Below, one piece after another: positions 6,854 through 53,906 of a stretch of 64,000 bases of DNA (position 1 is its first letter; each line of letters begins with the position of its first letter). The stretch comes from Zymoseptoria tritici IPO323. Its lineage: Eukaryota; Ascomycota; Dothideomycetes; Mycosphaerellales; Mycosphaerellaceae. Under the pieces are notes generated by a model. The model did not search any database. It saw only the letters and a list, made by a program, of their open reading frames with translations, and was not told the DNA's origin. The position numbers were made by a program, and so were the translations under genes. The DNA lies in contig NC_018214.1 in NCBI RefSeq assembly GCF_000219625.1, forward strand, positions 2,294,001 through 2,358,000. The letters run 5' to 3'.

Positions 6854-8323
6854 ATGACGCTTACTCTTACCTTACTTTTGGAAACACTTCCGACTGAATT
6901 GATCGAGCGAATCCTAGGATACGTGGCTTCAATCGATTATTCGAATGCACGCGCGGTGTGTTCGACGAACAGACTTGGCTGAAAGGCTGGCACGCCGGTC
7001 CTGTACCATACGCTGGGCATTCGATGCGAGGGATCGAGAGTGACTAAAGCGGAAGAGGAAAGCAGTGCCAATGTGGAATTAATACTATGCCGAAGAATCA
7101 ATGCTGGCATGCGAAAATGGTCCCTTCTCTGCCGAACTATTCTCGAGAACCGTCGTCTGGCGAGGCATGTGCGCGGCATCGAGGCGTACCTCGACGAGAT
7201 TGAAGATGACGCGCGGCTGCCGCATATGGCCTCTCGCTCCATACATCATGAGGCGCTCATGAAGATGGTGACCAAGGAGCTGACGATGCACAGATCATGG
7301 GTCTGGAACTGGCTGCAAACTCAACACGATCGTGCTTGGGCTGCATCTCGCCACGCGGATGGTATGGTCGGAATGTTTGCAGATGTCTTACCGCCAGTGT
7401 TTGGACCAGAGGTCTATCTGGGAATTCTGGTACTTGCATGTCCACGTCTACGTACCCTCGTGCTTTCTGGGCCGACTACGTCGGTGTTGGAGCCTCTCCA
7501 CGCACTTGCGTCAGCAGTGCAGAGTGTCAAAATTGATGGCACCAAGTGTCGATTTGGCGGCTTCAGCAGCGTGGGGAAGGTCCATTTCACTGAGGATGAC
7601 ATTGAAGACGAAGGAACAAATTGGGGCGTGGATAATGTGGGTATGGCCCTCTGGTGGCCCCGTATCAAGGAGTTGGCGGTAGAAGGGCTCGAGGACGTGG
7701 TCCAAAATCCCGTTCTTGGGCCAGATTTTGAGTCCACGCTGACAACGCTACACGCCACGGAAGCTATCACGTCAGTTGAAGATCTCATCATTCTTCTGCG
7801 ACCATGCAGACAGCTTAGGACCTTCAACTTCTCGTGGGACGGAAGCTACGATGTACATCGAGAACCAGACTGGCGAGCTTTAGCTGCGGCACTCCAGGAA
7901 TTCAACCCGAAGCTAACAAGCTTGAGGATAGATGTTGCTCATGAAGAGAATCTTCGCGCGGTCTTCGATGGGGCGCTCCCACCAGGCTTTGAAGCGCTAA
8001 GTGTATCCGAGCAACAAGAGATATTGGAGATCAACAACAAAGGCATGGGCTGCCTGACTGCTCTCAAGCGCCTACGAAGATTGGCAGTACCTCACTTTGC
8101 GTTGTTTGGATGGTTTGACGACGTGAACGAGCGTGACCACGATTGGACGCTGGCCGAGATTCTCCCCAGCAGCCTTGAAGAACTTGACATATTCTGCGCC
8201 GATGTCAGCTTCAAGAAAGAAGAAATGGCACTTCTGGGCGCAGCCGGGACCGAGAACCTCCTCAGAATGACGATCTGGAACTGTTTACGGACCAAGCGAT
8301 ATTCCAGACGCCTGACTGAATGA
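6854..8323 (+). CDS. F-box-like protein, reading frame interrupted by one TGA
   Basis: The N-terminus (LLETLPTELIERILGYVAS, then RAVCSTNRL) matches an F-box, the Skp1-binding motif of SCF ubiquitin ligases. The same frame continues to 8323 with leucine-rich-like segments (CPRLRTLVLSGP, PCRQLRTFNFSW). A single in-frame TGA at 6980-6982 separates the F-box from the rest; nothing else disrupts about 490 codons. Either the gene is inactivated, or the stop is skipped. A 75-bp GT-AG interval at 6956-7030 would keep frame but would cut into the F-box and lacks a clear branch site. Translation might alternatively start at 7040, giving 427 residues without an F-box. The substrate is unknown. Confidence 0.55.
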
Positions 8324-13293: not shown

Positions 13294-13325
13294 ACCCTGG
13301 CCTATCTCATGTGGATCAGAACCGC
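13294..13325. repeat. Left target duplication (8 bp) and left TIR (24 bp) of the 11-kb element
   Basis: ACCCTGGC at 13294-13301 repeats at 24428-24435 in direct orientation. 13302-13325 is the perfect inverse of 24404-24427. The insertion lies 190 bp upstream of the GT34 start. Confidence 0.9.
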
Positions 13326-13478
13326 CATACAGAGTGTTTTTCTCTCGTCGTCGTCACGTGCAATAGCAGCACGTGAGCAGGGAGGTTTTGAGTTATAGCC
13401 AGCCCCGATAGACTCCAACCTAGCCCCGAAAGTAGTATAGATAGGATGCACGGACTAACGAGAGAACACTCTGTATGG
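13325..13478. repeat. Subterminal inverted repeat, left end of the element
   Basis: CCATACAGAGTG... (13325-13348) is the inverse of 13458-13478, apart from a 3-nt bulge. It can form a stem of about 20 bp enclosing about 110 nt, which contains two CACGTG motifs. It could be a transposase binding site or a nested MITE-like remnant. Confidence 0.6.
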
Positions 13479-13757
13479 GGTCTGAGCTAGTTTTGCACAC
13501 TTTGGCCCTCTAAGCGCCCTAAACACGTCCAAAATCGACACTGTATACGCGATATATCGTGCTACCAACTAGGTGACATTCCAACCCACGGTAAGTCCTT
13601 ATGAAATACGCATATATATATGTATACCAAGTTTAACAGCACCAGCCCTCCTGCTCGTCGCGCCCCGACCCGGTCCTCGTTTTCCCTCTTAGCGCGTTTT
13701 GCCCCGAAAGCTACTACCCCTCCCCCGACGACGACGACTACGCAACACTAGCACCCT

Positions 13758-16700
13758 ATGGCGACCCCTAACATACGCGCGGCCCTTGCTAACATCGATC
13801 CTAACGTCCGCCGACTGCCTCTACGCTCCTCCGCTGCACCTAACGGCCGTCGTCGCTGCCCTAACCTACCAACCGCCAACCCCGAAGGGATACCCCTATC
13901 CTGCCCTGTGCCACGCAATCCTTATTCCTCTTAGCTAGGTCGTACTAGTAAGCAGACTCGAGTCGCTGGGCGCTTTAAGTCGGCAGTTAAGAAGAAGCAC
14001 CGCAGGTAGTCGAAGTAGCGTCTGCAGGGCAACTTCTACAATTACCTCCTACTACCCTTAGTAGCAGAAGAGTAGGATAACCCTCTCGGGGCGGAAGAGA
14101 TAGCAGACGTTAGGGCGTACATTGCCGCGGTGCCGGGGATAACATTAATCGAGCTCCGTGCCCTCGTCGCCTATGTAAGGAAGCCTGGATACTACGCCTT
14201 CTACCGTTAAGTGATCGAGGCAGGTCTTACTTAGATACTGGCTGCTTTAAATCCGACTGCGCCGCCCCGAAAGCCTTATCGAGAGCAGGTTAATATGCTC
14301 TATTCCTTGATCTTCGCCTCTTAGGATGTGCTGTTCGTGGCCCGCATAGGCATTAGCAAAAGCCTCGTGTTCTAAGCATTTACCGTGCTTACTAGCAGCA
14401 TTACCTTCTAGGTAGAGCCTCTTAGCAAGCTTAGTGAAGAGCAGCACCTGGATCTTACTCGCATCGCCCCCGACCTGCTAAAGTTATGCTTAATTATAGC
14501 TACCACGAAGCGTGACAACCCCGACCTGTTCTCTAATATTAAGGCTGGGAAGTATGACCATATTGTGCTTAGGCCCGAACAGGCGGTTTCCAACGACTTT
14601 AAGGCTATGCTCCGTAATAACCACATCCGCAGTTAGATCGGCTTAGTATCTATTGACGAGGTGCATCTGTTGTACTCGTAAGGTAAGTCCTTCCGGCTAC
14701 AATTCCTCTAGCTAGGCTAGCTAAGGCAGCTTGTCTCCCCCGACACTCGGTGGTTTAGTTGCACCGGCACCTTAACAAGGAAGGCTTAGAACTGTGTAAT
14801 TGCTAATAGGGGTTTCCGTCCTTTCGGGGCTGGCGTACGGCAGACTTAGCTGTACAGGAGTTCGATTAACCGCACCGACTATACCTATATCTTTAAGCTA
14901 ATTGTCCGCAGCAAGGCTTCCAAGTTCGCCCAGTTGTACTTTACTATTACCGGGTGTAAGGCTGGCAGCATCGCGACGCCGTAGGGTATCCTACGCACGA
15001 TTATCTTTACAGACAGTCGCATCGAAGTCGTGGTATTAATAAACTACATCCGAGCGTAGCTAGTTGCTATAACTGCTACCTCCCCCGAAGGAGAACGATA
15101 TGTATAGGACTCTGCCGGTGGCCCTCGTTGTATCGTTAACGTTGTGCAGATGTATTCGTCCGGTATCTCCGCTTACGATCAGACCCTTCGGTACAAGGCA
15201 TTTTGCACGGATGACTCTACCATCCGAATACTCGTGGCTACTACCGCGCTATGTATAGGGATTAACATCCCGCGTATATACCGCATTATCTAGTAGAAGA
15301 TGCTGTTAGAGCACTACATTATAAACCTCCGCTAGCGATTCGGCCGGGGTGGACGAGATCTACAGGCAGGGCATCGCACGCAATGCTACGGCTTCTTCCC
15401 CGCGTAGGCATTTAACACAGAAGGGTGTCCGAGACCAGGAGATCCGGCGCTAGGAAGCACCCCGAAAAGCAAGCGTAGGACGTACCAGCAGCGGCGTGGG
15501 TTGGTTGTTAACTACCACGACGAGTGTACTACACCGCTATCAGACAGCGATGGCAGACAGCGATGGCAGCGATGACGACCAAGGCAATGATTCTAGCCCC
15601 GAAATAGACGCCGGCGACTCTGACCACGAGGGCGGCCTGCCTGCTTCACCGGCACCCTCACAGCAGAGGCTGCTTGTTCCTAAGCCGTTGCGTTACTTTA
15701 ACAAGAGCGAGACCAAATCGAGGGCGTGTATAGATGCCGACCTGCATGCTATTATTAACGCTCCGTATAGACGAGCTGTGTAGGATAACCTCTTGTTAGA
15801 GAACGAATGCGTTAAGCGTCCGCCGCTAGTGCCAGCAGAAGTGTGTTGCAACCGGAACTGCAATCCTTTACTAGTAGCTAATAACCCTGTATTCTAACTA
15901 GTTATAGGCGAGATTAAGAAGCCTAAAGGGAGGGGAGGAGTTGCATTAGACCTGCTTACGAGGTGGAGTAAGCGTGTTGTCGACTGCATGTATCCTGCAC
16001 GGGGTCGTCGGTTTACTATGCCACCTAGCATATTCCTCCCCGAAGGGCTAGCTTGGGGTATATGTGCTAAATTCAACAGCCGCGACAGGGTCAATGGTCG
16101 CAACCGGAGCGACTGCACAAAATAGGTGTATAAGCTCGCTCTGCTTAACCGACGCATTAGTTCGGCGCTGCAGCTATGGTCGGAGAGGGACGAGGAGTAG
16201 AGAGATCTAGCGACTTCTAAAGTGTGTCGGGGTTCGGAGCTTCTCCTTCGGGGCTTGCGCGAAGTAGTCCCGTTGGCATATACGGAGTATAGCGCTGTGC
16301 TGGCCTGCAGGGCTGCTGTCAAGAAGCGGAAACGCGATAAGCAAAAGGTCGCTGCTGCTTAAAAGGCGATGCTGGAGAGTATGCCTGAGCCTAAGCGCAG
16401 GATGTTCCTTATCTAAGAGCGGCGTTCAGAGGTCGAGCGTGCTGCACAACAGGCGTCTACTATGACGACCACTCTGATCCCGCGGCGCGTCGAGCTACCG
16501 CTGCTTCGTCGGCTGCATAGCAAGAGCCGATTAGGCGTCGAGGTGTCGTTCGGGGATGGTCCTAAAGCCGAGTTGCCGCTAGTTGGCACTAAATCACATA
16601 TAGCTGCAATCGACAAGAACATAGCGAAGCGCGCGGAGGGCAGGGCTCCACTCGCTTTTCAAGCAGTCGCTAGTGCGATTAATGCAGCCAATCAACCGGA

Positions 16701-16905
16701 CAACCACCTCGGCTTGAGTTTCGACTCGGGCTATAGCGGTGAGGCGGGTGGTATACTATCCTCGCCACCGGTTCCTAGTCGGATAAGAGCAAACCCTACT
16801 GCCACTGCTGCTGCTACTACGCCCCGGGTGACAGAGTCTCCAGCCGAGGAGGGCTTTGGGTATAGGTTGCTCGACAGCGACGACGACAGGGTTCGACAGA
16901 ACTAA
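13758..16905 (+). pseudogene. RecQ-like DEAD/H helicase of the element (in-frame UAR codons, one frameshift)
   Basis: From ATG 13758 one frame runs to the 13-bp duplication at 15541, then resumes one frame over to TAA 16903. With one duplicate copy removed it makes 1,044 codons. About 28 in-frame TAG/TAA codons and no TGA occur. Reading them as unknown residues, the helicase order is clear: a Q-motif-like YREQVNMLYSLI; Walker A ARIGISKSLVF (normally GxGKS); motif Ib KYDHIVLRPEQA; motif II SIDEVHLL; motif III WFSCTGTLT; motif V RILVATTALCIGINIP; motif VI RFGRGGRD. Then come an acidic linker, a CCNRNCNPLL cysteine cluster as in fungal RecQ-type proteins, and a basic C-terminal region. TAG or TAA falls where Gln is expected (VF-stop-A after Walker A; before RFGRGGRD), and in one place probably where Trp is expected. 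Expression as it stands needs read-through or a functional sister copy. Confidence 0.75.
15541..15566 (+). repeat. 13-bp tandem duplication causing a frameshift in the helicase gene
   Basis: CAGACAGCGATGG occurs twice in a row (15541-15553 and 15554-15566). Removing one copy restores a continuous acidic linker reading LSDSDGSDDDQGND. Confidence 0.85.
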
Positions 16906-18332
16906 CGGCCAATGTGCAGGAATCGCCAGCTGACTCCGAAGGGGGCGAACCTGTATAGTCGATCGCTAGGCAGATCCAGCCCTTTAGCGAGGTAGTGCTA
17001 ATTCTTGTAATACTACTCTCTTTCGGGGCTGGCGACATGCTTTCGGGGCTGCCTATTGTATATACTTCGATGTAAATTCCTTTCCTGGCTAATGCGTGTC
17101 GGCTTGGTAAGGACTTCTTGGTATTTAGGGACTGCTACCGGTGGAGCGTCGTTGTCTACCGCCTCCGCTATAACATACTCCCCCTTATCCAACACCCCCA
17201 TTAGTGAGAACTTGCTGGTATTCCGGGCTGCCGGTGTTGTTGTTGTCCACCGCCTCCGCCATAACATGCTCTCCCTTATCCAACACCCCTATTAGTAAGG
17301 ACTTGCTGATATTCGGGGTAACCAGAGAGTTGAGGGTTCTTTCTTCGAGAATATGGTGCAAATGAAGACGCACATGTACTCCACGGTCGCCGTTGCCGCT
17401 GTCGTCGTCGTCGTCGTCGTCGTTGTGAACTCTCGTCTTCTCGGGCGTCGCCAGCCGGCCCCTGCCCTGTCCTCGTAGTCCCCCGGCTTCTTAGGCGTAC
17501 GCCCTTTACATAGAATCGGACCAAGGAGTCTAACAGGCGGGTGTATAGCCCTTCGGGGCGGCATTAACCGCATAAATCGTATATATCAAGTCCTTAATAA
17601 GGAGATTTGGTGTCAACATTAACCATTAGACCGTGCGCGGTATACCGTATCGGGTAAGCCGGGCGTCGATCCGACACCAACGTCACCTGCTGTTGTATAC
17701 GAGAGGGAAACGCCTGTATATTTCGCTACTACATATTGTCTGCTGGCCAACACAGGGCACTCTCGCATCGTAGAATACCTTCTCTTACACTATTAGCATG
17801 TAAAGCTGTCGCCGCGAGCGCACCAGGTGGCCCACCCCCTACCAACTCTGCAGCCTGCGAGGTTTAGGTAAACATAGGGCAGCATGTGCATTTCCATGTG
17901 ATGTCGTCGTCTTCCGCTGACAATACGCCGCATGTGCACGCTGCGTAATCATGGTATTGTCGCACGAGGGTAATCTAGTGCACGTGTGCCTGTGCATGTG
18001 CCGGTGTACGTAAATTCGCAGGTAAATGATCGCCGCCCTCTTTCCCTTAATTGTGCCGGCGACGACGAGCTGCCAGTGGTTTATAAACGCCCCCACCTCT
18101 TCCTTTCCTTCTCTTCTACATCCACTTCGACATCCACTTCCTTCGACATCCACTTCCTTCCTTATCCACAACCTTCTTTACCCTTCTTTCTCCTTCTTCC
18201 ACTTTATTAACAACACCCACTGCTAGCGCCAGCGCTATAGCGCCACCTAACGACAAGTCCGACAAGGACAAGCAGAAGGAGAAGGACGAGGAGAATAACA
18301 ATAACAACAACCGGCGCAGACCACAGAGCAGG
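16906..18332. repeat. Non-coding interval of the element with about 95-bp tandem repeats
   Basis: Two imperfect copies of a unit of about 95 bp span roughly 17105-17300, with a partial third copy to about 17320. Each includes CTTATCCAACACCCC and TTGCTGRTATTC. Copies of TTTCGGGGCT surround it (17021, 17041). A pyrimidine-rich stretch with CTTCGACATCCACTTCC repeats lies at 18118-18165, just before the next gene. No gene recognised. Confidence 0.55.
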
Positions 18333-20688
18333 ATGGAATCCTCTCTGCGAGGCGCAATAGGCAATCCCTTTAGCACGCCCGGTCCCACTTACCGCTAGCA
18401 CTACGAGCATAGCATGCGGAACAGGGAAGAAGAGCGCAGTACGAGGCAGCGATACACTAGCATAGCGGTAAAGAATGCGAGGGATGCCCTACGCAGGTTT
18501 AGTCCTTCGTCGAGGCTACTAACATGCTTGTCGATATACCAATCGCCAGATAACACCGAGCGCATAATCGTAGAGAGCGAGCGCAAGCGGATTCGCAGCC
18601 GGAGTAAGTTACCCCGATAGCATCCAGCGCAGCCCCGACACTGACCCTCCTCTTATTATAGCTCCTTCTGTCGCCCCTTTAGCGGCCCCTTCACTTAGCA
18701 ACCCTTTCTCCCTAATAGGCAACATCCCTAAGGTTCCGAGCACCCTGCGCACAGATACTCGTCTACCATCCACTCCAACTCCGTCCGCACGTGCACCGCC
18801 AGCTACTGCACCGCCAGCTACTGCACTACCAGCTACCTCCCCTCCTGCTGCTGCTACCCCCGACATGCCTAACGTTAGCAGCCTCAACCTCGGCGGCACG
18901 GGCTTTAATCGCATGCGCCGAACCTTCTTAGGTGCACCTCGCGCTCCGCCTCGGTTGGCCCCCAGCCGACCCCCGGAACCGTACGTAACCTTTTAACACC
19001 CGGACAGGGCAGTAACCTTTGCAGGAATCGACCCTAGGAATACCGCATACGACCTAATTCGAGGATACTACGATCCTACATTGACTAGTAGGAACCCTCG
19101 CATCCCCAACACGCCGGGTAAGCCGACTTCTTCTAGGCCTATCCGGGCTAGCAACGAGCGGGGCAGCGGTAGTTCCGAGACGTTGGTCCTTGGAGTTCGG
19201 TTGTTCGACGCCGTTAAGGGCGCGGCCCTTAGTAGTGGCAGTAGTAGCAGTAGTGGCTTCCTTCCGGATGCTTCGCTTTCTCCAGGCTCACCGGTGGGCT
19301 CACCTAGGACGCTTAGGAGGGGACATGGTCGCACCGCTAGTAGCTCGCGGACACAGCAACTTAGTAGCAACTATAGCGACCTGCCCTAAAGCGGCTCTAG
19401 CAGCATAATGCCCCAAAGCGGTTCCGGCAGTATAATGCGCTACGACTCGGACAATTTAATAACCCTCTCTATCGCTTCTGCGGACATCGACTCGGTTCTA
19501 ACTAATAACATCGACCGCCGCCTTAACGACATGCCAGAGGGCCTCTAGTACATCCCGGAAGTCTAGTCCAGTGATGGCACGATCTGCACAGAGTGCCTAA
19601 AGCTCATCTGCGAGAGGAACAAGCTAGCACGCCCCGATAAGTTCTGCTGCGGCAATACGTTCAGTAGTAACGGCAGTGCCCCGAAACAGAAGGGCTGCAA
19701 CAACTGTAGCTGGAAAACCGGACGCAAGAAGCAGTGCACCCTAGTTACTAAGACGCAGGGCTCGGGCAGGTTCTAGAACGGTAGCACTACCGTCTTCAAC
19801 CGCGCACATAACGTGCTCGAAGTCCTCCGCCAGCGTGCTCTCTACGCTACTAAGGAGCTAGAAAAGGCGAAGGCTAACAATGCGAGCAAGGAGAAGGTCG
19901 CTAAGCTGGCCGAGGAGCGGGAGAAGCTCTTAACTACCTGGCAGGAGTACGCATGCAAGATGCGTAAGACTATTAGCTAGTAGGCTTCCTCTAAGAAGAC
20001 TAAGGGCGCCGCCAACCGCAAGACGTAGGAGGAGCAGCTACAGCAGGTCCGCGAGAACAACGGCAACATAGAGCATAAGTTGCTAATCCAGCTCGGCCAG
20101 TAGTCGTTCTTCGCCAACGGTGCCGCTAACGCTGTGCCCCGCGGGCTGCCGCTAACTAACGTCGTCGTAGACCGCGCTGTTAAGATCGGTGTGCGTAACT
20201 TCCTGCTTCGCAACGGCATGCAGAGGGCGCGCCTTTGGTACTACGGGCGCCAGGCTCCGGGTCGCCGCAGTAGAGGCAACGGTAGGAACACGGGTAGGAA
20301 CGGTGGAGGCGGTAGGAACGGTGGAGGCGGTAGGAACGCTAGTAGCAGCTCCAGCAAGAAGGACTCTAACAAGGACTCTAACAAGGACTCCAACAAGGAC
20401 TCTAACAAGGACTCCAACAAGGACTCTAACAAGGACTCTAGCAAGGACTCCAACAAGAAGGATGCGAGCAAGAAGGATGCGAGCAAGAAGGATGCGAGCA
20501 AGAAGGACGACAGCAAGAAGGAGCTGTCGGCTAGCAAGAAGCAGCAGCTGTCCGAATTGTTCGGCAAGAAGGGTAGCGGTGGTAGCAGCGAGAAGAAGGG
20601 CGACGGCGGTAGCAGCGGGAAGAAGGACGGCAGCAGTGGCGACAGCGGCAGTAGCGGCGGGAAGAAGGACAATACGCAGTGTCCTTAG
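18333..20688 (+). pseudogene. Cysteine-cluster, coiled-coil, low-complexity protein of the element
   Basis: Exons 18333..18603 and 18662..20688 are joined across a 58-bp intron with ideal signals (GTAAGT, ACTGAC, TTATAG). They give 765 codons with about ten in-frame TAG/TAA and no TGA or frameshift. The frame is also open upstream of ATG 18333, and TAG 20686 may not be the true end. Order: basic N-terminus, Pro/Ala/Ser-rich middle, a cysteine cluster (CTECLKLIC, then FCCGN, then GCNNCSWK and a further Cys) likely to bind zinc, a coiled coil (ELEKAKANNASKEKVAKL), then Gly/Asn/Arg repeats and Lys/Asp/Ser tracts. A DNA-binding accessory role is a guess. I do not recognise the family. Confidence 0.6.
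20356..20520 (+). repeat. 12-bp and 15-bp coding tandem repeats
   Basis: Repeated AAGGACTCTAAC-type units (peptide KDSN, about eight copies) are followed by three AAGAAGGATGCGAGC units (KKDAS). They lie within the low-complexity tail of the preceding gene. Confidence 0.8.
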
Positions 20689-20897
20689 CAGTAGGACGAG
20701 CGCGGATCGTCGGTTTTAGCGAGATAATTGTGCCAGTTCAGCCCCGACAGATACTATGTCAGCCCCGACAGCCAGAATTAGTTTTTAATAGGCAGGGCCA
20801 GCGTTGTTTGGACTAAGACTGCATTGCTAACGAGCACTGCCAAAAGCGTTAATTTGGACCGAGAACAAGCATAGCAATAGCCCCGACAGAGATTAAT

Positions 20898-23800
20898 TCA
20901 AACGAAATGCGTAAACACAGGTCCCATCGTCTAGTATAGCTCAGGATTAAGCAGCAGGACCTCCCTGTTATCTATGCTACCCTTACTAATGTCATAAGAG
21001 GCCAATAGATCAACCTCTGGCCTGTCTGCATTATAGCGCAGGGCGACTTTAGGTGCCGCAGCAACCCTCACATGCCGCCGCTCGACGTGTTTAGCATTAA
21101 ACTTATCGATCTGAGCTCCGATCAGGTTGCGTCCATCAACATACGGGTCACGGATACTCGTCTTGTCGACAGTGCCATAGGCAGTAAAGCCTACTTTCGG
21201 GGGGGCTACAAAACCCCTAAGGAGCTTCTGTACCAGACCCTATGTATCGTAACTAGTGTCCTTATATAAATGCCCTCCTAAGTTCTTCGTGCCGAACTCC
21301 TCTTCAAGTAATGCATGCTGCTTCGCAGTAGCTTTTGTAGAGAGAGCGACTTTAATAAATATAGCGTTAACGTCGTGTGTTAAGTTCTTGTAGGCCTTTA
21401 TCTTATTCTGATACCGCCCATTCTTAAGCTCTAGCAGCTCGTTAACTGCGAGCCCTTTGCTATACCGACCAGCTATGTTTACGAAGCCACAAGCTAACAA
21501 CGCCCGCTAAAGCACTAGGGCCGAGTTTAAGAGGAGCTACCGGAAGTACAACATCTCTCTGCCGTAATTACTCTGGCCAGCCCCGAAGAATATAATAGCC
21601 AATTGTTCGAGACACCGGTTAACATGTCTAATATCTATGCGGCGGGTGGCCTAACGGAGCGTTATCTAGAGCTTGGTAATGTGCATGCGTCGAGTTAACG
21701 CAAGTGTAGTAGAGCTGCGAGTATTCGTGTTATTAGGGGTGGCTTCGGGGCTGGGCTAGTTGCTTTCGGGGCTGAATCGCACTAGGTCTAGGTCATTTCC
21801 TTGCGCTGACTACGCCTCTAGTGCCAGAATCTGCTGGTATATGTTAGACAGAATAGACACGTACTTCCTAGGCGAAAGGTGCTGCAGAGCCTCTCGTACG
21901 ACATTAATATTAGTAAGTCTAGCATAATTGCTCCCATACGAGCTAATTAACCTCCTGCGCCGCAGAGCCAATACGAACAGCCACACAACGCGAGCCTAAT
22001 AGCCCTAGAGCACTACCGGCCGCAGCTTCTAATACGGCGACTTCTTCTTAGGCAGGTTGGTAACCCCGAACTAGTTAATGTCACCCTAGACGGAGTGCAA
22101 GTTAGCCATGCTGCTAGGCTAGTACGACCAAAAGAGCTTGCTAATAGTAAAGCAGAGGTTTATAGCAGTATAGAAGAAGGAAGAGGGCCCGATAAGCCAT
22201 TCGCGGCGATCGAAGGCTCGGTTTGCCTCTCGCGACTCCTGCTTGACACTGCGGATGCGCATAGCAGTTAATTAATCCCTGTATACCAGCTACAAGCGGT
22301 TGCGGAACATCGGATTATCTATTGCGAACTTAAACTTGTTAATCCAGATGTCCTCGTGCACTGCGGCGGTGCCGTTAATAGTACCCTCGTTCTGGAAGAT
22401 TGCCCCGATAGGGTGATATCTGCACACGTTCGGCGGAAGCTTACTAATCCCGGGCCACTTCGTCCGTTCGCAGACGAAGTCGTTACTGCTTAGGTGCTTA
22501 ATGTCGACCCCAAACTGTGCTATTATAGCGGAATGCATATGATACATAGACAGTCGTTGGGCGTACTCATTACAGGGGCAGAGCGGTGGGGAGTTGAATA
22601 CATCCTTCAGTTTCAAACCCGTATAGGGCGTGAACATATCCTGTGTAAGTCCGCCCTCGGGGATGTGGTCGCTCTTAATTATTAACGCGGTGGTAAGGTT
22701 CCTTATGACGTCCCCGGTCGACATGGAAGAGTCTCGAACCCTGTCCATAAAGTTCATGTTGTCGTATACAATAAATGTATTCAAAATGCGAGAAAGACGG
22801 ATAAGTTCTTGCTAAAGCGGTTAGCGCAGAAACAGGATACACTGTAATGGGTAACCGTACCTTCTGCCTCCTAGCGTGATTGTGGAGGTCCTGGTTGATA
22901 GTAGAATAGCCGGATACGAAGCCCTGTCCCGCGAGCATATCTAGCGCCCTGCGGTTAAGGCTATTAAGGGTAAGGTAATTACCTATGACACGAGCAAGCC
23001 AGTTGGACTTGTTGCGATGCCGCGAATGGAGAACGTTTGCACTGAACATAAAGATCCGGCGATCTAGTTCCCTCTCGTAGCGCTCTGCGCTCTTGCGAGA
23101 GCTGCGAGGGTTGCGGAGCAGCCCCGATAGTAGTTTATGCTACGTCGGGGCGAGGCGCCGCATTAAAGCGTACACCTCTACGAAGGCGTGGGGCTGTGTG
23201 TACCGACGCATCTCGTCGTCCTCGCCGTCCGACCGCTCCGAATCATCCCCGTCACTACTAGCTAAACCGGACTGTCCTAATAGACCACCCTCTATTTGCC
23301 CCGAAGCTATACCCGTCTGCCCCGAAGCCATACCCGCTGCTGTAGGTATCACCCCCTAAGTGTTGGAGCCAGCCTCCGGCTATGTATTCTCATCCTCTTT
23401 ACTGCCGTCCTCTACATACGGCTAGACATATACACTACGACTGCCCTTACTAGCTCCCTGTGTATGCTGCCCCGAAGGAGTGGGCTCGCTTACTTTAGCC
23501 TAGCTTAAGGGCTTGGGGCCGCTAAACCTCCTAAGTATAGGGATATGCTTTATTAATGCATCAAGCTCCTTCTTAATTACACCCTTTCCCTAGAGCCTTT
23601 TAAACCGCCGACCCGCGACTCGAATCCTTTCTTTAATTAACAATAACCGTGCCCTCGTAGCCTTCTGGCTATCCTTTGCGATCCAAGACTCGACGAACTT
23701 AGGCACTAATAGGCAACAGTCTCGTAGTTGCTGTAGGACCTTATCGCGCTTGCTAGCAGTTATACGTCCTATCCGCCGGCTCGCACTAAAGGACCGGAGG

Positions 23801-24006
23801 GTTTCGTTAGGGTCAGGTATGTCGCTGTCGAGGTCGCTGTCGAGGTCCCTGTCGGGGGACGACTAGGTAGAAGCAGCAGATAAGGGCTTGCTAGGCCTCC
23901 TGCTAGGCCGAGGGGTAGCGTCGGGGGAAACAAAGTCGGAATCAGCGTATACAGTAAGCTCGCTGCTAGGATAAGGCGTATTAGGCCGACTAGACGTGTT
24001 TGGCAT
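20898..24006 (-). pseudogene. DUF6589-type protein of the element (1,019 codons, about 23 in-frame UAR)
   Basis: On the minus strand ATG 24006 leads, across one 49-bp intron (22812-22860, GTACGG...TTTAG), to TGA at 20900-20898. That is exactly 1,019 codons with no frameshift. About 22 TAG and one TAA fall in frame and no TGA does. The segments match the fungal DUF6589 family as I remember it. They are HRNKSNWLARVIGNYLTL; FVSGYSTINQDLHNHARRQK (intron follows); NTFIVYDNMNFMDRVRDSS; a central helical block; and LAIIFFGAGQSNYGREMLYF followed by FVNIAGRYSKGLAVNELLEL. The N-terminal 300 residues are acidic and low complexity. DUF6589 proteins are uncharacterised and recur in fungal repeats. As the largest non-helicase gene of a TIR element, it is the best transposase candidate. 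Trp codons are retained at seven places. Confidence 0.72.
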
Positions 24007-24282
24007 AGTTTTTGGTCGGTTTTAGGGGAGAAAAACGCGTATATACGTGGAGTTCGGGGGATTAATAGTGTACAGTAGATTCCACCGTAGGATGTTTAAC
24101 ACCGGACAGAACAGAGGGAGTCTTGTGTTTCCTTACGTAAAAATATCGCGCTCTCCCTACAGAAAGGTATAGAAACTAGCTTAGACCCTCTAGGCACTTT
24201 CCTCCTCCTGTTGCTCCTATTAGCTAGAATTATTGTAGAGCCCTTAAATGTAAACAATCTTGCCCTAAAGGGGAATAGGTTT

Positions 24283-24349
24283 GCCCCGAAAGGGGCGCTA
24301 GCCCTAAAGGGGTCTAGTATAGAAGCCTATCGCCGAAGGCGACAGGCTT
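24283..24349. repeat. Subterminal hairpins, right end of the element
   Basis: GCCCCGAAAGGGGC at 24283-24296 is a perfect 5-bp stem with a GAAA loop. 24323-24349 (AAGCCTATCGCC ... GGCGACAGGCTT) forms a 12-bp arm hairpin with one mismatch. Both lie within 150 bp of the right TIR. Confidence 0.6.
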
Positions 24350-24403
24350 GCCTGTCACGTGCGGAGCACATTCGAGCCTGAGGCGAGAATATAAGTGCCT
24401 AGA

Positions 24404-24435
24404 GCGGTTCTGATCCACATGAGATAGACCCTGGC
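24404..24435. repeat. Right TIR (24 bp) and right target duplication (8 bp) of the 11-kb element
   Basis: 24404-24427 is the perfect inverse of 13302-13325. The following ACCCTGGC (24428-24435) is the direct repeat of 13294-13301. Confidence 0.9.
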
Positions 24436-50041: not shown

Positions 50042-50625
50042 GGCGGTCGGTTCAGGAGGAGGTTGTCGAGGTTGGTGTCAACGATCGAAAGAGGTTGAGG
50101 ACCTTGAGGTGGTGTTTCGGGAGCTGTCTCTGCAGGGACGAAGGCAATGTTAGTGGACCCGCCAATGCAAAGTCAATCCAATGGATGACGATAATATATG
50201 GGAGTGGAAACGTACACTGATGAAGTGTTTGCTGCTTCGAGTCGGTTTGTAGATGTTCGCTGCGCAACAATGGGTGAGAATGGATTGCGTTGTGATTGTT
50301 CGTCTTCTTTCTTCGAGTCGTCTAGAAGCAGTCGTCGGATGTCTTGAAGTTGGCCAGTTCGCTTCCGTTGTACAGCTGCATGTTCACTCTACGTTAGGAG
50401 GTGGAGTTGAAGACGGTGAGCATGTTGTGAGGGTGAAAGTGTTGTTGATGTAGTGAATGTAGAAGAGAAAGAATGAGAGGCAACAATAATCTAAAAGCCT
50501 CCACGAATTCTTTGGAGGGGAGCCAAAAGACAGGCCTCCTCCGCCGCTTTCGCCCCCACCTCACCCAAGGACCGAGCTCACTTTAGCCCGCCAGGGATCA
50601 GTCCTGTGGTCTGCAGTGACGATCG
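50042..50625. other. MTHFR upstream region up to the MULE insertion
   Basis: About 580 bp. It contains the MTHFR promoter and 5' leader. The last 9 bp (TGACGATCG, 50617-50625) are the left target-site duplication of the MULE. Confidence 0.5.
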
Positions 50626-50679
50626 GGGAATTGCTATCCACCGGCGCCCTCAAAGCTAGTTACCGGCGCCCTGCTATAT
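50617..50679. repeat. MULE left target duplication and TIR
   Basis: TGACGATCG (50617-50625), then the TIR starting GGGAATTGCTATCCACC (50626-50679). Confidence 0.92.
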
Positions 50680-53600
50680 CGGCTGTTATCCTGAACGGTG
50701 GATATCGCTAATGTGATATCTATGCTGTATTGGTGTATCTGCCTCGTTAATTATACTCTTAGCATATCCTTATCGTCCTTAGTGTAGGAGGGCTTAATAA
50801 TATAGAGGGTAGTAGTAATTATAAACGTCTATATAGCTTAAAATTAATTCCCTTACTCTGCCCTTATGTATTGTCGTAGATATAATAGTAGACGCTCGAA
50901 TTAAAGGTGTTGTTACGGCGGTAGTGCCGCTATATAACTATATTATCGCTATACCGGTACGGTAGAAAGTAGTAGTATACTATACTCTTATTAGAAGCCT
51001 TATATCTACCGCTCGTTACGCGAGGGTGCTTATACTAATAGTCGTAGTCTAACTACATGTCGAATAGTAGTCTTATTTAGTTGCACACTATAGCTAATGC
51101 TATAGTATAAGCTATAAGGCGTATAAACGAGCGGTTAGCGTTGTTAATAAGGCTAGCTCTACGAAGGAGTTACGAGTCTACTACGCCCTCGTCTACTACG
51201 CCCTCGTCTACTACCCCTTGTCGCCGCCGGTGCGGTAGACGTAGGGCTGTTAGTATTAATAAACTCGAAGGCTAATAGCTCTCGACTATTAGTACGACTA
51301 TAGCCTCTACTAGTACTACGTCTACTACGGCTACGAGCGTTCGTTCGATAGTTGTTCGGAAGGATAGCCGGCTTAAAGAGTCGCCGGTCGAGAGCAACGA
51401 TGCGAGCTAGCGGTGCGGCCTATTTATCTATATGCTAGTAACGTATAAACATAGCTATTATATATCGTAATCGACCGCCGGTTATTATCTATATAATTAT
51501 ATATATATAAGGGCAACCCTATAAGGGCGTAAACTAGTACGAGCAGATAGTCGGTGTAGTAATCTTACCGTCCTTTAGAGCCCTTAGCTCTTATAACGCT
51601 AACACCTCTTACTCTTATACCTTCTATAACGCCTTACGGTAAATGCTACGGTTTACCTCTATATATACTAGCGTGTTTAATATATACGGAATCGCCTTAC
51701 GTTAAAGGCTATGCGCTACTCTTAGCTAACTCTCTTAAAGCTACTACTATAGCTCTATCTTAAGGAACAAACTAAGGACGTTGTAGCGCTTACTAGCTAG
51801 CTACTTCTTAAGTGTTAAATAAGCGCCTTTACCGCGTAACGACGAGGTCTAGCCGAATAATAGATATTACGTAGTCTAGTAGGCTACGAGCTTCTCCTTA
51901 TAAGGCTAGTATTCGCGGTTAATATAGTCGTATAGCTAGCTAACCTCCTTAGACTAATCCTAGCTCTAGAAGGCGTTGTTGTTACTATTAAACTTATCTA
52001 CTATCTTACTATTAATTGCCCTTCTAAACATAGCTATAAACGCGACTACTTAAGGAGCGTCTACCTTTAAGCTAGTCGGCTCGCTAGCCTTATTAATACC
52101 TAGTACTTATAGCTACTTCTTACGAGCCTAAGCCTATACGTTCTTAAAGACGTACTAGCGACATATTATCGAGGGGATCTCCGGAAACACGGCATTTAAG
52201 GCGTTTATTAAGCCTCTGTTACGGTCGGTAATAAATAAGCCTAGTAATAGTAGGGGATCGTATATCCGTAGAGCGGTCGGTATTAAGCTAGGCTTATAGT
52301 AAGTAAGTAACAACTCCTTAAACTTCTTAGCGATCTATATATAGGTTGCCTCGTCCTTACCGCCGATAAGAGCGAAGCTAAGGGGGATAGTAAGATTAGC
52401 ACTAGTGCCGGAAACAATGTCTATTAATAGCCGGTTATAGCGGTTAGTTTTATAGGTGTTATCGAGGATAATATACTCTAGATACTAGCGGTAAAACGAC
52501 ACTATTCGAGGACTAAGGACTATTAGTTTATCTAGCTTACTAGCATTATTCGGCTTATGTTTAAAGAGGTATCCCTTACGCTCTAATATCTTTACGACTA
52601 CCTTAGCTAGCGTTAAATTGCCTTAAAGTAGGCGTCGAGTATTCTATCGAGTATTACGAATGTCCTTAGCCGTCTAGATATAGTCGCTATTAGTATTCTA
52701 AAGACGAGCGAGCGTAGTAGTAACACCGGCATTAGTATTAAGACCCTCGTAAATAGCCGTCCGTATCGCTCTATCTCGTTCGCGGCGGCGATATATTACG
52801 AAGGCCTTAGCGTTAAGAGGCTAGTAACAATAGTCGTTATAAGTAGGTCGAACGATCTACCGTCCGGCCGGTTTACTTATATCTTATAGTATAATATCTA
52901 CCTTTATTAGATAGCCGATAGTTAAGATCCCTCGTCGCCCTCGTATACTATCCTTTAGTCGCCGCTTCTACTACCGTCCTCGATAATAGCCTAATACCTT
53001 ACGAACGTAGTACGTCTTCTTCTTATTCTAGTAGGTTAAATAGACTAATAGAGTATAGCCTCGAGCTATAGCCTACTCGTTATAGAACTCGAGAGCCTTC
53101 GTAGCGCTAGCGAAGGTCTTACCTACCGGTAGAGGCTCTAGTTTTTCGACCTTATCGTACGGAGCGTCCTTATTAATCGCCTTACTAGTAATACCCTTAC
53201 GAACAATACCCTTACTAAGGAATTAATTCGAGCGCGTAAGGTTAGTAGATAACTTAGCGCCGGCGGCGGTAACGGTAACCTCTAACCTCTACGAATTCGT
53301 TGTTCTTATACTAATATTACTAATATTACTAATACTACTATTTCTATTAAGAGCTCTACTAATCTTATTACTACTTAGTAGGCCTATTAACTCTTTAATA
53401 TCCTTATCGATATTGCTCGAATCGTCTACCTCTACCGCCGCCGCCGCCGCCGCCGCCGCGTACGCCTCTCGCTTAGCCGCTCGACGTACGAGCCGGTTAA
53501 TAATATCTCTAAACATCCGCGCGCCGCGGCTACCTCTAGCTCTATCGTTATCCTTATCTAGTATACTAGAGTCTTTAAGAAGGCGGCGTTCGTATAGTAG

Positions 53601-53897
53601 CTACGATGCTATTAGCGGTAGTAACGGCGGTCGAAGGGTAGATAACACTAGTGCTATTAAAGGAGCTAGATATAACGAGTTTTAAGGGCAATAGCGACGA
53701 GGGGGGGGGGGGGGGTAGAAGAGGTAGTAGAGGGAAGGACGACAACGCGTACACGCGACACGCGACGTATCCCGCGCACGGCCCTGTATTGCACCGGAAA
53801 TCGACTATAAACTGGGATCTGACTAACACGCGATATACAGGTAATATAGTAGAGCGCCGGTGACTAGCTTTGAGGGCGCCGGTGGATAGCAATTCCC
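50626..53897. mobile_element. RIP-mutated Mutator-like (MULE) DNA transposon, 3,272 bp
   Basis: Exact ends: 54-bp terminal inverted repeats (50626-50679 and 53844-53897, three mismatches) flanked by a 9-bp direct repeat TGACGATCG (50617-50625 and 53898-53906). The interior is AT-rich and almost lacks CA and TG dinucleotides while TA is in great excess, the classic RIP signature. A dead MULE transposase lies on the minus strand. The TIRs keep normal composition. Two of their three mismatches are CA->TA or TG->TA changes. The element is inactive. Confidence 0.92.
51400..53280 (-). pseudogene. MULE transposase remnant
   Basis: Reading one minus-strand frame through the stops gives KGYLFKHKPNNASKLDKL, IILDNTYKTNRYNRLLIDIV (catalytic Asp region), SFALIGGKDEATYI, LFITDRNRGLINALNAVFP and, further on, EY-stop-PYKEKLVAY. 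These are the order and motifs of fungal MULE transposases. Stops fall mainly at Gln and Trp positions (TAG). The limits are approximate because the ends are too mutated to place. Confidence 0.75.
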
Positions 53898-53906
53898 TGA
53901 CGATCG
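53844..53906. repeat. MULE right TIR and target duplication
   Basis: TIR 53844-53897 is the inverse of 50626-50679. TGACGATCG follows at 53898-53906. A homopolymer G tract of 17 or more lies inside the element near 53702-53716. Confidence 0.92.

What the first reader, a model, noticed from the sequence alone, without database searches (positions are those of the whole stretch)
13302..24427. An intact-ended 11.1-kb DNA transposon class pairing a RecQ-like helicase with a DUF6589 protein
Seen: 24-bp perfect TIRs, an 8-bp target duplication (ACCCTGGC), and three large genes with coherent introns. These are a RecQ-like helicase, a cysteine-cluster/coiled-coil protein and a convergent DUF6589-type protein. 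There is no recognised DDE, RT, Rep/Hel or DUF3435 gene. Helitrons have helicases but no TIRs or duplications; hAT, KDZ and MULE elements have TIRs but no such helicase. I know of no named superfamily with this combination. Inference: DUF6589 may be a transposase, giving a function to an orphan domain.
Basis: partly seen in the sequence, partly recalled or inferred. Interest (0 to 1): 0.9.

Follow-up and report, generated by a model that had tools for sequence, protein, structure and literature searches.

The report
Jumping gene pairing transposase and helicase
This is a now-broken 11-kb jumping gene of a wheat-infecting fungus whose unnamed protein domain turns out to look like a DNA-cutting transposase and which travels with its own RecQ-type DNA-unwinding enzyme, a kind of pairing already reported for a few other elements but here with a likely function for an orphan domain.

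Summary
The ends are real: 24-bp perfect TIRs and an 8-bp duplication, ACCCTGGC. In this genome (Zymoseptoria tritici) the ends occur at 17 places: 7 paired insertions, each with its own exact 8-bp duplication, plus 3 single ends. Four copies are large, three short. The genes are not intact: the window copy carries CpA-to-TpA damage and many in-frame stops.

DUF6589 is very likely a DDE transposase. Models of a homologue and of the window's own exon match Hermes, P-element, Transib and RAG1 structures well above anything else listed, with a conserved D, D, E. Plain Foldseek gave nothing significant. The helicase is RecQ-like and lies within 20 kb of 36 of 38 DUF6589 loci. A sister family carries both genes between other TIRs; 29 of 30 intervals checked have exact 9-bp duplications.

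Helicase-carrying TIR elements are already named (AcademH, KolobokH). This works like AcademH, but its duplication is 8 bp, not 9-10 (PMC10045372), and no Academ transposase sequence was at hand. Verdict: new variant of a known kind.

The parts
13294..13301 (.). Target site duplication, left (ACCCTGGC)
13302..13325 (+). Terminal inverted repeat, left end, 24 bp
   Evidence: 17 genome matches
14022..15467 (+). RecQ-like helicase domain (interrupted by stops; DEVH box, WG..FR with the W read as a stop, GRGGRD-type motif VI). The gene probably extends beyond both sides.
   Evidence: DEAD 5e-5, below Pfam's cut-off; best: 1oyw 5.3e-10, then WRN, RECQ5
19003..20702 (+). Reading frame with Cys cluster, coiled coil and Lys/Ser/Asp-rich tail; found in the three other large copies
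20931..22811 (-). DUF6589 main exon, likely DDE transposase core; D17 codon 22761-22763, D179 codon 22275-22277, E461 codon 21429-21431; 15 TAG + 1 TAA
22860..23850 (-). Probable upstream (N-terminal) exon of the DUF6589 gene, in another frame; boundaries approximate
   Evidence: translation, by similarity to the start of L001, read by eye
24404..24427 (-). Terminal inverted repeat, right end, 24 bp
24428..24435 (.). Target site duplication, right (ACCCTGGC)

Best explanation
The element is a cut-and-paste-type DNA transposon of Zymoseptoria tritici. DUF6589 is its RNase H-fold DDE transposase with an all-helical insertion domain, like hAT Hermes and the P element. It is inferred to bind the 24-bp ends (pattern NNNTCTCA, shared with two sister families), pair them, cut, and join them to target DNA across an 8-bp stagger, which gives the 8-bp duplication. 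The RecQ-like helicase is inferred to be a partner that unwinds or processes ends or the strand-transfer gaps; the Cys-cluster protein may bind DNA. Short copies with both ends and duplications suggest that the ends suffice in trans. The window copy is dead, mutated by RIP. Shown: ends, duplications, copies, gene pairing, fold match of models. Inferred: catalysis, helicase role, cut-and-paste rather than replicative movement.
Confidence: 0.87

Rival explanations
1. It is simply a member of the known AcademH lineage: DUF6589 is the Academ transposase that Pfam has not named, and the window family differs only in its 8-bp duplication.
For: AcademH elements carry a helicase, occur in animals and fungi (title of Kojima 2020, seen in reference lists) and make 9- or 10-bp duplications (PMC10045372 passage). 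The sister family here with the same two genes makes 9-bp duplications: 29 of 30 exact. Ends of three families share TCTCA at positions 4-8 (one end of the C1 element reads TCTTA).
Against: Window family makes 8 bp in 7 of 7. No Academ transposase sequence could be compared; the paper is not held. The identity of DUF6589 with the Academ transposase is my expectation, from recall only.
Confidence: 0.7
2. DUF6589 elements are a superfamily of their own, separate from Academ and Kolobok, which acquired a RecQ-like helicase independently.
For: No Pfam transposase family other than DUF6589 is hit in the element or in P0001 and P0002; DUF6589 is in no paper and PF20231 in one unrelated paper of the library searched; 8-bp duplications fit neither AcademH (9-10) nor KolobokH (TTAA).
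Against: Gene content and the 9-bp sister family fit AcademH well; absence from an open-access library is weak evidence.
Confidence: 0.2
3. DUF6589 is an accessory protein and another product (for example the Cys-cluster protein) is the recombinase.
For: Activity was not tested; all four large copies also carry the Cys-cluster frame.
Against: The DUF6589 models match DDE transposases with a conserved D, D, E; no other frame of the element hits a transposase or recombinase family in Pfam at E<=0.1, though RIP damage limits that test.
Confidence: 0.07
4. A Helitron, Starship or captured host-gene cluster with coincidental inverted ends.
For: It has a helicase; one copy spans 37 kb (C14).
Against: TIRs plus exact duplications at 7 of 7 insertions; no Rep or DUF3435 match; the two stop-free helicase matches that I take for host RecQ genes are far weaker (C12:538875, E 1.8e-9; C6:901799, E 1.6e-4).
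Confidence: 0.01

Closest known systems
AcademH (Academ superfamily, Kojima 2020)
   Same: DNA transposon of fungi and animals encoding a helicase; 9-bp duplications in the sister family here
   Different: Window family duplicates 8 bp, not 9-10; identity of the transposase could not be compared; paper itself not read (not held), features taken from passages of PMC10045372
KolobokH (Kolobok superfamily)
   Same: Fungal DNA transposon encoding a RecQ helicase together with a DDD/E transposase (PMC9587614, section 3)
   Different: TTAA 4-bp duplications; [quoted passage not shown]
P element and hAT (Hermes) transposases
   Same: About 8-bp duplications (PMC3706591 passage) and the same RNase H fold with helical insertion in the models
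   Different: 7-10% identity over the aligned part, no sequence-level match; no helicase in those elements (recalled)
KDZ elements (Kyakuja, Dileera, Zisupton)
   Same: Fungal; 8-bp duplications for the Dileera Zisupton-1_PGr (PMC12730594)
   Different: No KDZ domain hit; the ones in that paper carry TET/JBP rather than RecQ

Membership tests
AcademH | Helicase encoded inside the element | tested here: met
   RecQ-like helicase inside the TIRs in 4 of 4 large copies
AcademH | 9- or 10-bp target site duplication (PMC10045372) | tested here: not met
   8 bp in 7 of 7 insertions of the window family. The sister family meets it: 9 bp exact in 29 of 30
AcademH | Transposase homologous to Academ transposases | not testable with these tools
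   No Academ sequence found in the libraries used; source paper not held
KolobokH | TTAA 4-bp duplication | tested here: not met
   Seven different 8-bp duplications
KolobokH | C/DxxH motif between second D and E | tested here: inconclusive
   A conserved H (18 of 19 rows) lies in PAWFH, with neither C nor D three residues before it in the rows shown
DDE (RNase H-fold) transposase | RNase H fold with D on strand 1, D after strand 4, E in a late helix | tested here: met
   Two models; PDB matches; residues. Predicted structure only; plain Foldseek not significant
DDE (RNase H-fold) transposase | DNA cleavage and strand transfer | not testable with these tools
   Needs a bench assay
hAT / P superfamilies | 8-bp duplication | tested here: met
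hAT / P superfamilies | Sequence-level relation of the transposase | tested here: inconclusive
   Only DUF6589 is reported by Pfam at E<=1 for P0001 and P0002; similarity seen only in fold
KDZ | KDZ transposase domain | tested here: not met
   No Pfam match at E<=0.1 other than Helicase_C and DUF6589 over both strands (the last 126 bases of the minus strand were not scanned); damage by stops limits the test
Helitron | No TIRs and no target site duplication | tested here: not met
   TIRs and duplications present
Starship | DUF3435 tyrosine recombinase | tested here: not met
   No such Pfam match at E<=0.1, same limits as above
RecQ helicases | SF2 helicase core closest to RecQ among solved structures | tested here: met
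   In one search (41 matches at E<=1) every row at E<=0.0004 is named RecQ, Q1, Q4, Q5, WRN, BLM or ATP-dependent DNA helicase (1oyw, 5.3e-10, which I know as E. coli RecQ); the rest (RecA, an ABC protein, one more RecQ) are at E>=0.046

The most novel reading that the evidence does not exclude
DUF6589 is the catalytic domain of a transposon superfamily of its own, distinct from Academ and Kolobok, in which a DDE transposase and a RecQ-like helicase form one obligatory machine, sometimes as two convergent genes (8-bp duplications) and sometimes in one giant reading frame (9-bp duplications), so that helicase coupling may set the stagger length.
Probability: 0.2. Interest if true: 0.82.

Novelty: new variant of a known kind. 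Interest (0 to 1): 0.62.

Why it matters
DUF6589 is listed by Pfam as a family of unknown function. The evidence here (fold of two models, conserved D-D-E, target duplications exact at 36 of 37 checked insertions in two families, near-constant pairing with a RecQ-like helicase) makes 'DDE transposase' a concrete, testable function. It lets genome annotators recognise these long, RIP-damaged elements, and sets two families with the same two genes but 8-bp and 9-bp duplications side by side, a natural test of what the helicase does in transposition.

Tried and rejected
Tried without result: TIRs or duplications of the little-RIPed C18 locus (one search timed out); literature for DUF6589 (0 papers) and PF20231 (1 unrelated paper); the AcademH paper by DOI and PMC id (not held). 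The first two homologue searches gave only 4 and 6 proteins at E<=0.001, I think because acidic low-complexity words filled the candidate list, so one search used a region of P0002 (17 proteins at E<=0.01, P0002 itself included). In each of the three only the 7,998-7,999 candidates sharing most words were scored. PDB profile search with the DUF6589 alignment: 0 matches at E<=1. Plain Foldseek: not significant. Families not listed by VIA-align are not excluded by it.

Errors of mine: the first alignment of the window exon was in the wrong frame, redone; row L027 is in a wrong frame and is not used; one search printed a frame one base off, redone.

Considered and rejected: a reassigned TAG codon or stop-codon editing. 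The commonest residue of relatives is W or Q at 6 of 15 scorable stops and something else at 9, among them F at 3, so the stops do not stand for one residue; with the TpA excess and CpA loss RIP is the better account, though the 9 other positions are not direct support for it. Helitron, Starship, KDZ: see Membership tests.
Full report
What is in the window. TIRs of 24 bp lie at 13302-13325 and 24404-24427, flanked by ACCCTGGC at 13294-13301 and 24428-24435. The genome is a 39.69-Mb, 21-contig assembly. A DUF6589 stretch of it matches at 100% (rounded) over 95% of its length a protein named Zymoseptoria tritici ST99CH_1E4, so I take the host to be that wheat pathogen.

The ends define a family. 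A genome scan for the TIR with up to 3 mismatches gives 17 places, against 0 for the control pattern. They form 7 pairs plus 3 single ends. All 7 pairs have exact and different 8-bp duplications: window ACCCTGGC; C3:1845502-1858432 GCACGCGG; C2:1244965-1263137 GGCGTAGG; C14:213644-250895 TGCGGGCT; C6:2163386-2164253 GACGAAGT; C7:119455-120338 GACGAGAC; C12:463099-463966 CGATGGTC. The last three are short (868, 884 and 868 bp), MITE-like. The long copies align with the window element in long stretches: C3 at 89.5-93.5%, C2 at 83-85%, C14 at 71-85% in pieces.

The genes. In the + strand a RecQ-like helicase reads at about 14022-15467: by sequence its best solved relatives are 1oyw (5.3e-10; E. 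coli RecQ as I know it), WRN and RECQ5. A second + frame at about 19003-20702 has a Cys cluster, a coiled coil and a low-complexity tail; at E<=1e-3 it is found in the C3, C2 and C14 copies and not in the C1, C18 or sister-family stretches tested. Converging from the other side is DUF6589 (PF20231, E 1.9e-33). Pfam at E<=0.1 finds nothing else in the element on either strand beyond a weak Helicase_C; a scan of the helicase piece alone adds a weak DEAD match. None of the genes is intact. In 1-kb bins the element has TpA/ApT of about 1.2-2.2, where the flanks have 0.3-0.8 apart from a second damaged stretch at 50-54 kb; CpA is lost in favour of TpA in every neighbouring-base context, the mark of repeat-induced point mutation (RIP). 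The main DUF6589 exon has 15 TAG and 1 TAA; the helicase stretch has 18 TAG and 3 TAA. Only 1 of these 16 exon stops has a sense codon in C3 or C2; of the differences from C2, 208 of 223 are transitions, 155 of them in the RIP context, and from C3 162 of 211, 119 in context. The shared stops mean either near-saturating RIP in those copies or an already damaged progenitor moved by a working relative; I cannot tell which.

Pairing with the helicase. The genome search gave 41 DUF6589 match stretches, which I merged into 38 loci, and 44 helicase stretches in 40 loci; both counts are lower bounds by the tool's note. 36 of 38 DUF6589 loci have a helicase match within 20 kb; random placement would give about 1.5. 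Two DUF6589 loci and four helicase loci lack a partner; two of the latter (C12, C6) have no in-frame stops and I take them for host RecQ genes, and C14 is the window-family copy whose DUF6589 region is broken by inserts.

Sister families. In 29 of the 38 loci the helicase lies in the same orientation as DUF6589, in most of them 3.4-4.0 kb away. Comparing three of them showed elements of about 11.6 kb with ends TAGTCTCAGACGC[AT]CA. The end pattern occurs at 91 places, control 3. I picked the 29 intervals that hold both genes, by reading together, plus one of three short intervals, and fetched their edges: 29 of 30 have exact 9-bp duplications and one has a single mismatch. In 24 of 29 loci the two domains lie in the same reading frame, and one copy shows a frame of 3,301 codons without TGA that holds both. 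RIP removes TGA, and other frames of the three copies reach up to 2,457 such codons, so length alone proves little; but this frame has the lowest stop density in 3 of 3 copies. Here the two domains are probably one large protein. A third family, C1:162937-175447, has the convergent order, ends TTATCTCAGCAAGC and an 8-bp duplication with one mismatch; its boundary was chosen after the fact. The three families share TCTCA at positions 4-8 of the end, except that one end of the C1 element reads TCTTA.

What is known. Helicases in DNA transposons of this kind are in print: AcademH, with 9- or 10-bp duplications (passage of PMC10045372; the AcademH paper itself is not held and was not read), and KolobokH, with a RecQ helicase, in a superfamily that duplicates TTAA (PMC9587614, section 3). 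A screen of 1,237 fungal genomes says AcademH was found as low-copy elements in Basidiomycota, Ascomycota and Mucoromycota (passages of PMC10799480). [quoted passage not shown] I did not test whether those are related. A 2023 study counts 304 TE families in the species (PMC9970103, introduction); I could not compare with its library, so this family may already be listed there under another name. DUF6589 gave 0 papers and PF20231 one unrelated paper in this open-access library; that says little about subscription journals or Repbase.

Judgement. That the element is a TIR DNA transposon family is as good as certain. That DUF6589 is its DDE transposase is very likely (0.87 for the whole explanation). 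That it is a branch of AcademH is likely (0.7) but untested where it counts, and the 8-bp duplication does not meet the 9-10 bp feature; hence new variant of a known kind, working like AcademH. How the helicase contributes is inference.

Noticed in passing
window 50500-53900: A heavily RIP-mutated stretch (G+C 0.41-0.48, TpA/ApT about 2) with 64-nt inverted arms at 50623-50686 and 53837-53900 and a MULE transposase domain (Pfam E 8.4e-14): a dead Mutator-like element.
   Followed up: partly
L039/L040/L042 (C18:105000-134000): A DUF6589 gene with a convergent RecQ-like helicase and Cys-rich frames that is hardly RIP-mutated (TpA/ApT 0.4-1.0 over 114-125 kb), on a small contig; the two helicase pieces have one TAG each. 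No TIR or duplication found.
   Followed up: partly
L041 (C3:1997000-2006900): Sister family: helicase and DUF6589 lie in one frame without TGA for 3,301 codons, suggesting a giant fused protein, followed by a Cys-containing stretch.
   Followed up: partly
L030-L033 (C14:213644-250895) and L028-L029 (C2:1244965-1263137): These two copies share an inserted segment of about 7 kb (86% identical) at different places in the element, and C14 holds further inserts; probably nested transposons.
   Followed up: no
window 20931-22811 against L026 and L028: Only 1 of 16 stops of the window exon has a sense codon in the two other copies, although RIP should hit copies separately; saturation or movement of an already damaged copy.
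   Followed up: partly
C1:4509625-4510045 and C7:1582623-1582745: Two further very short intervals (421 and 123 bp) bounded by sister-family ends, MITE-like; duplications not checked.
   Followed up: no
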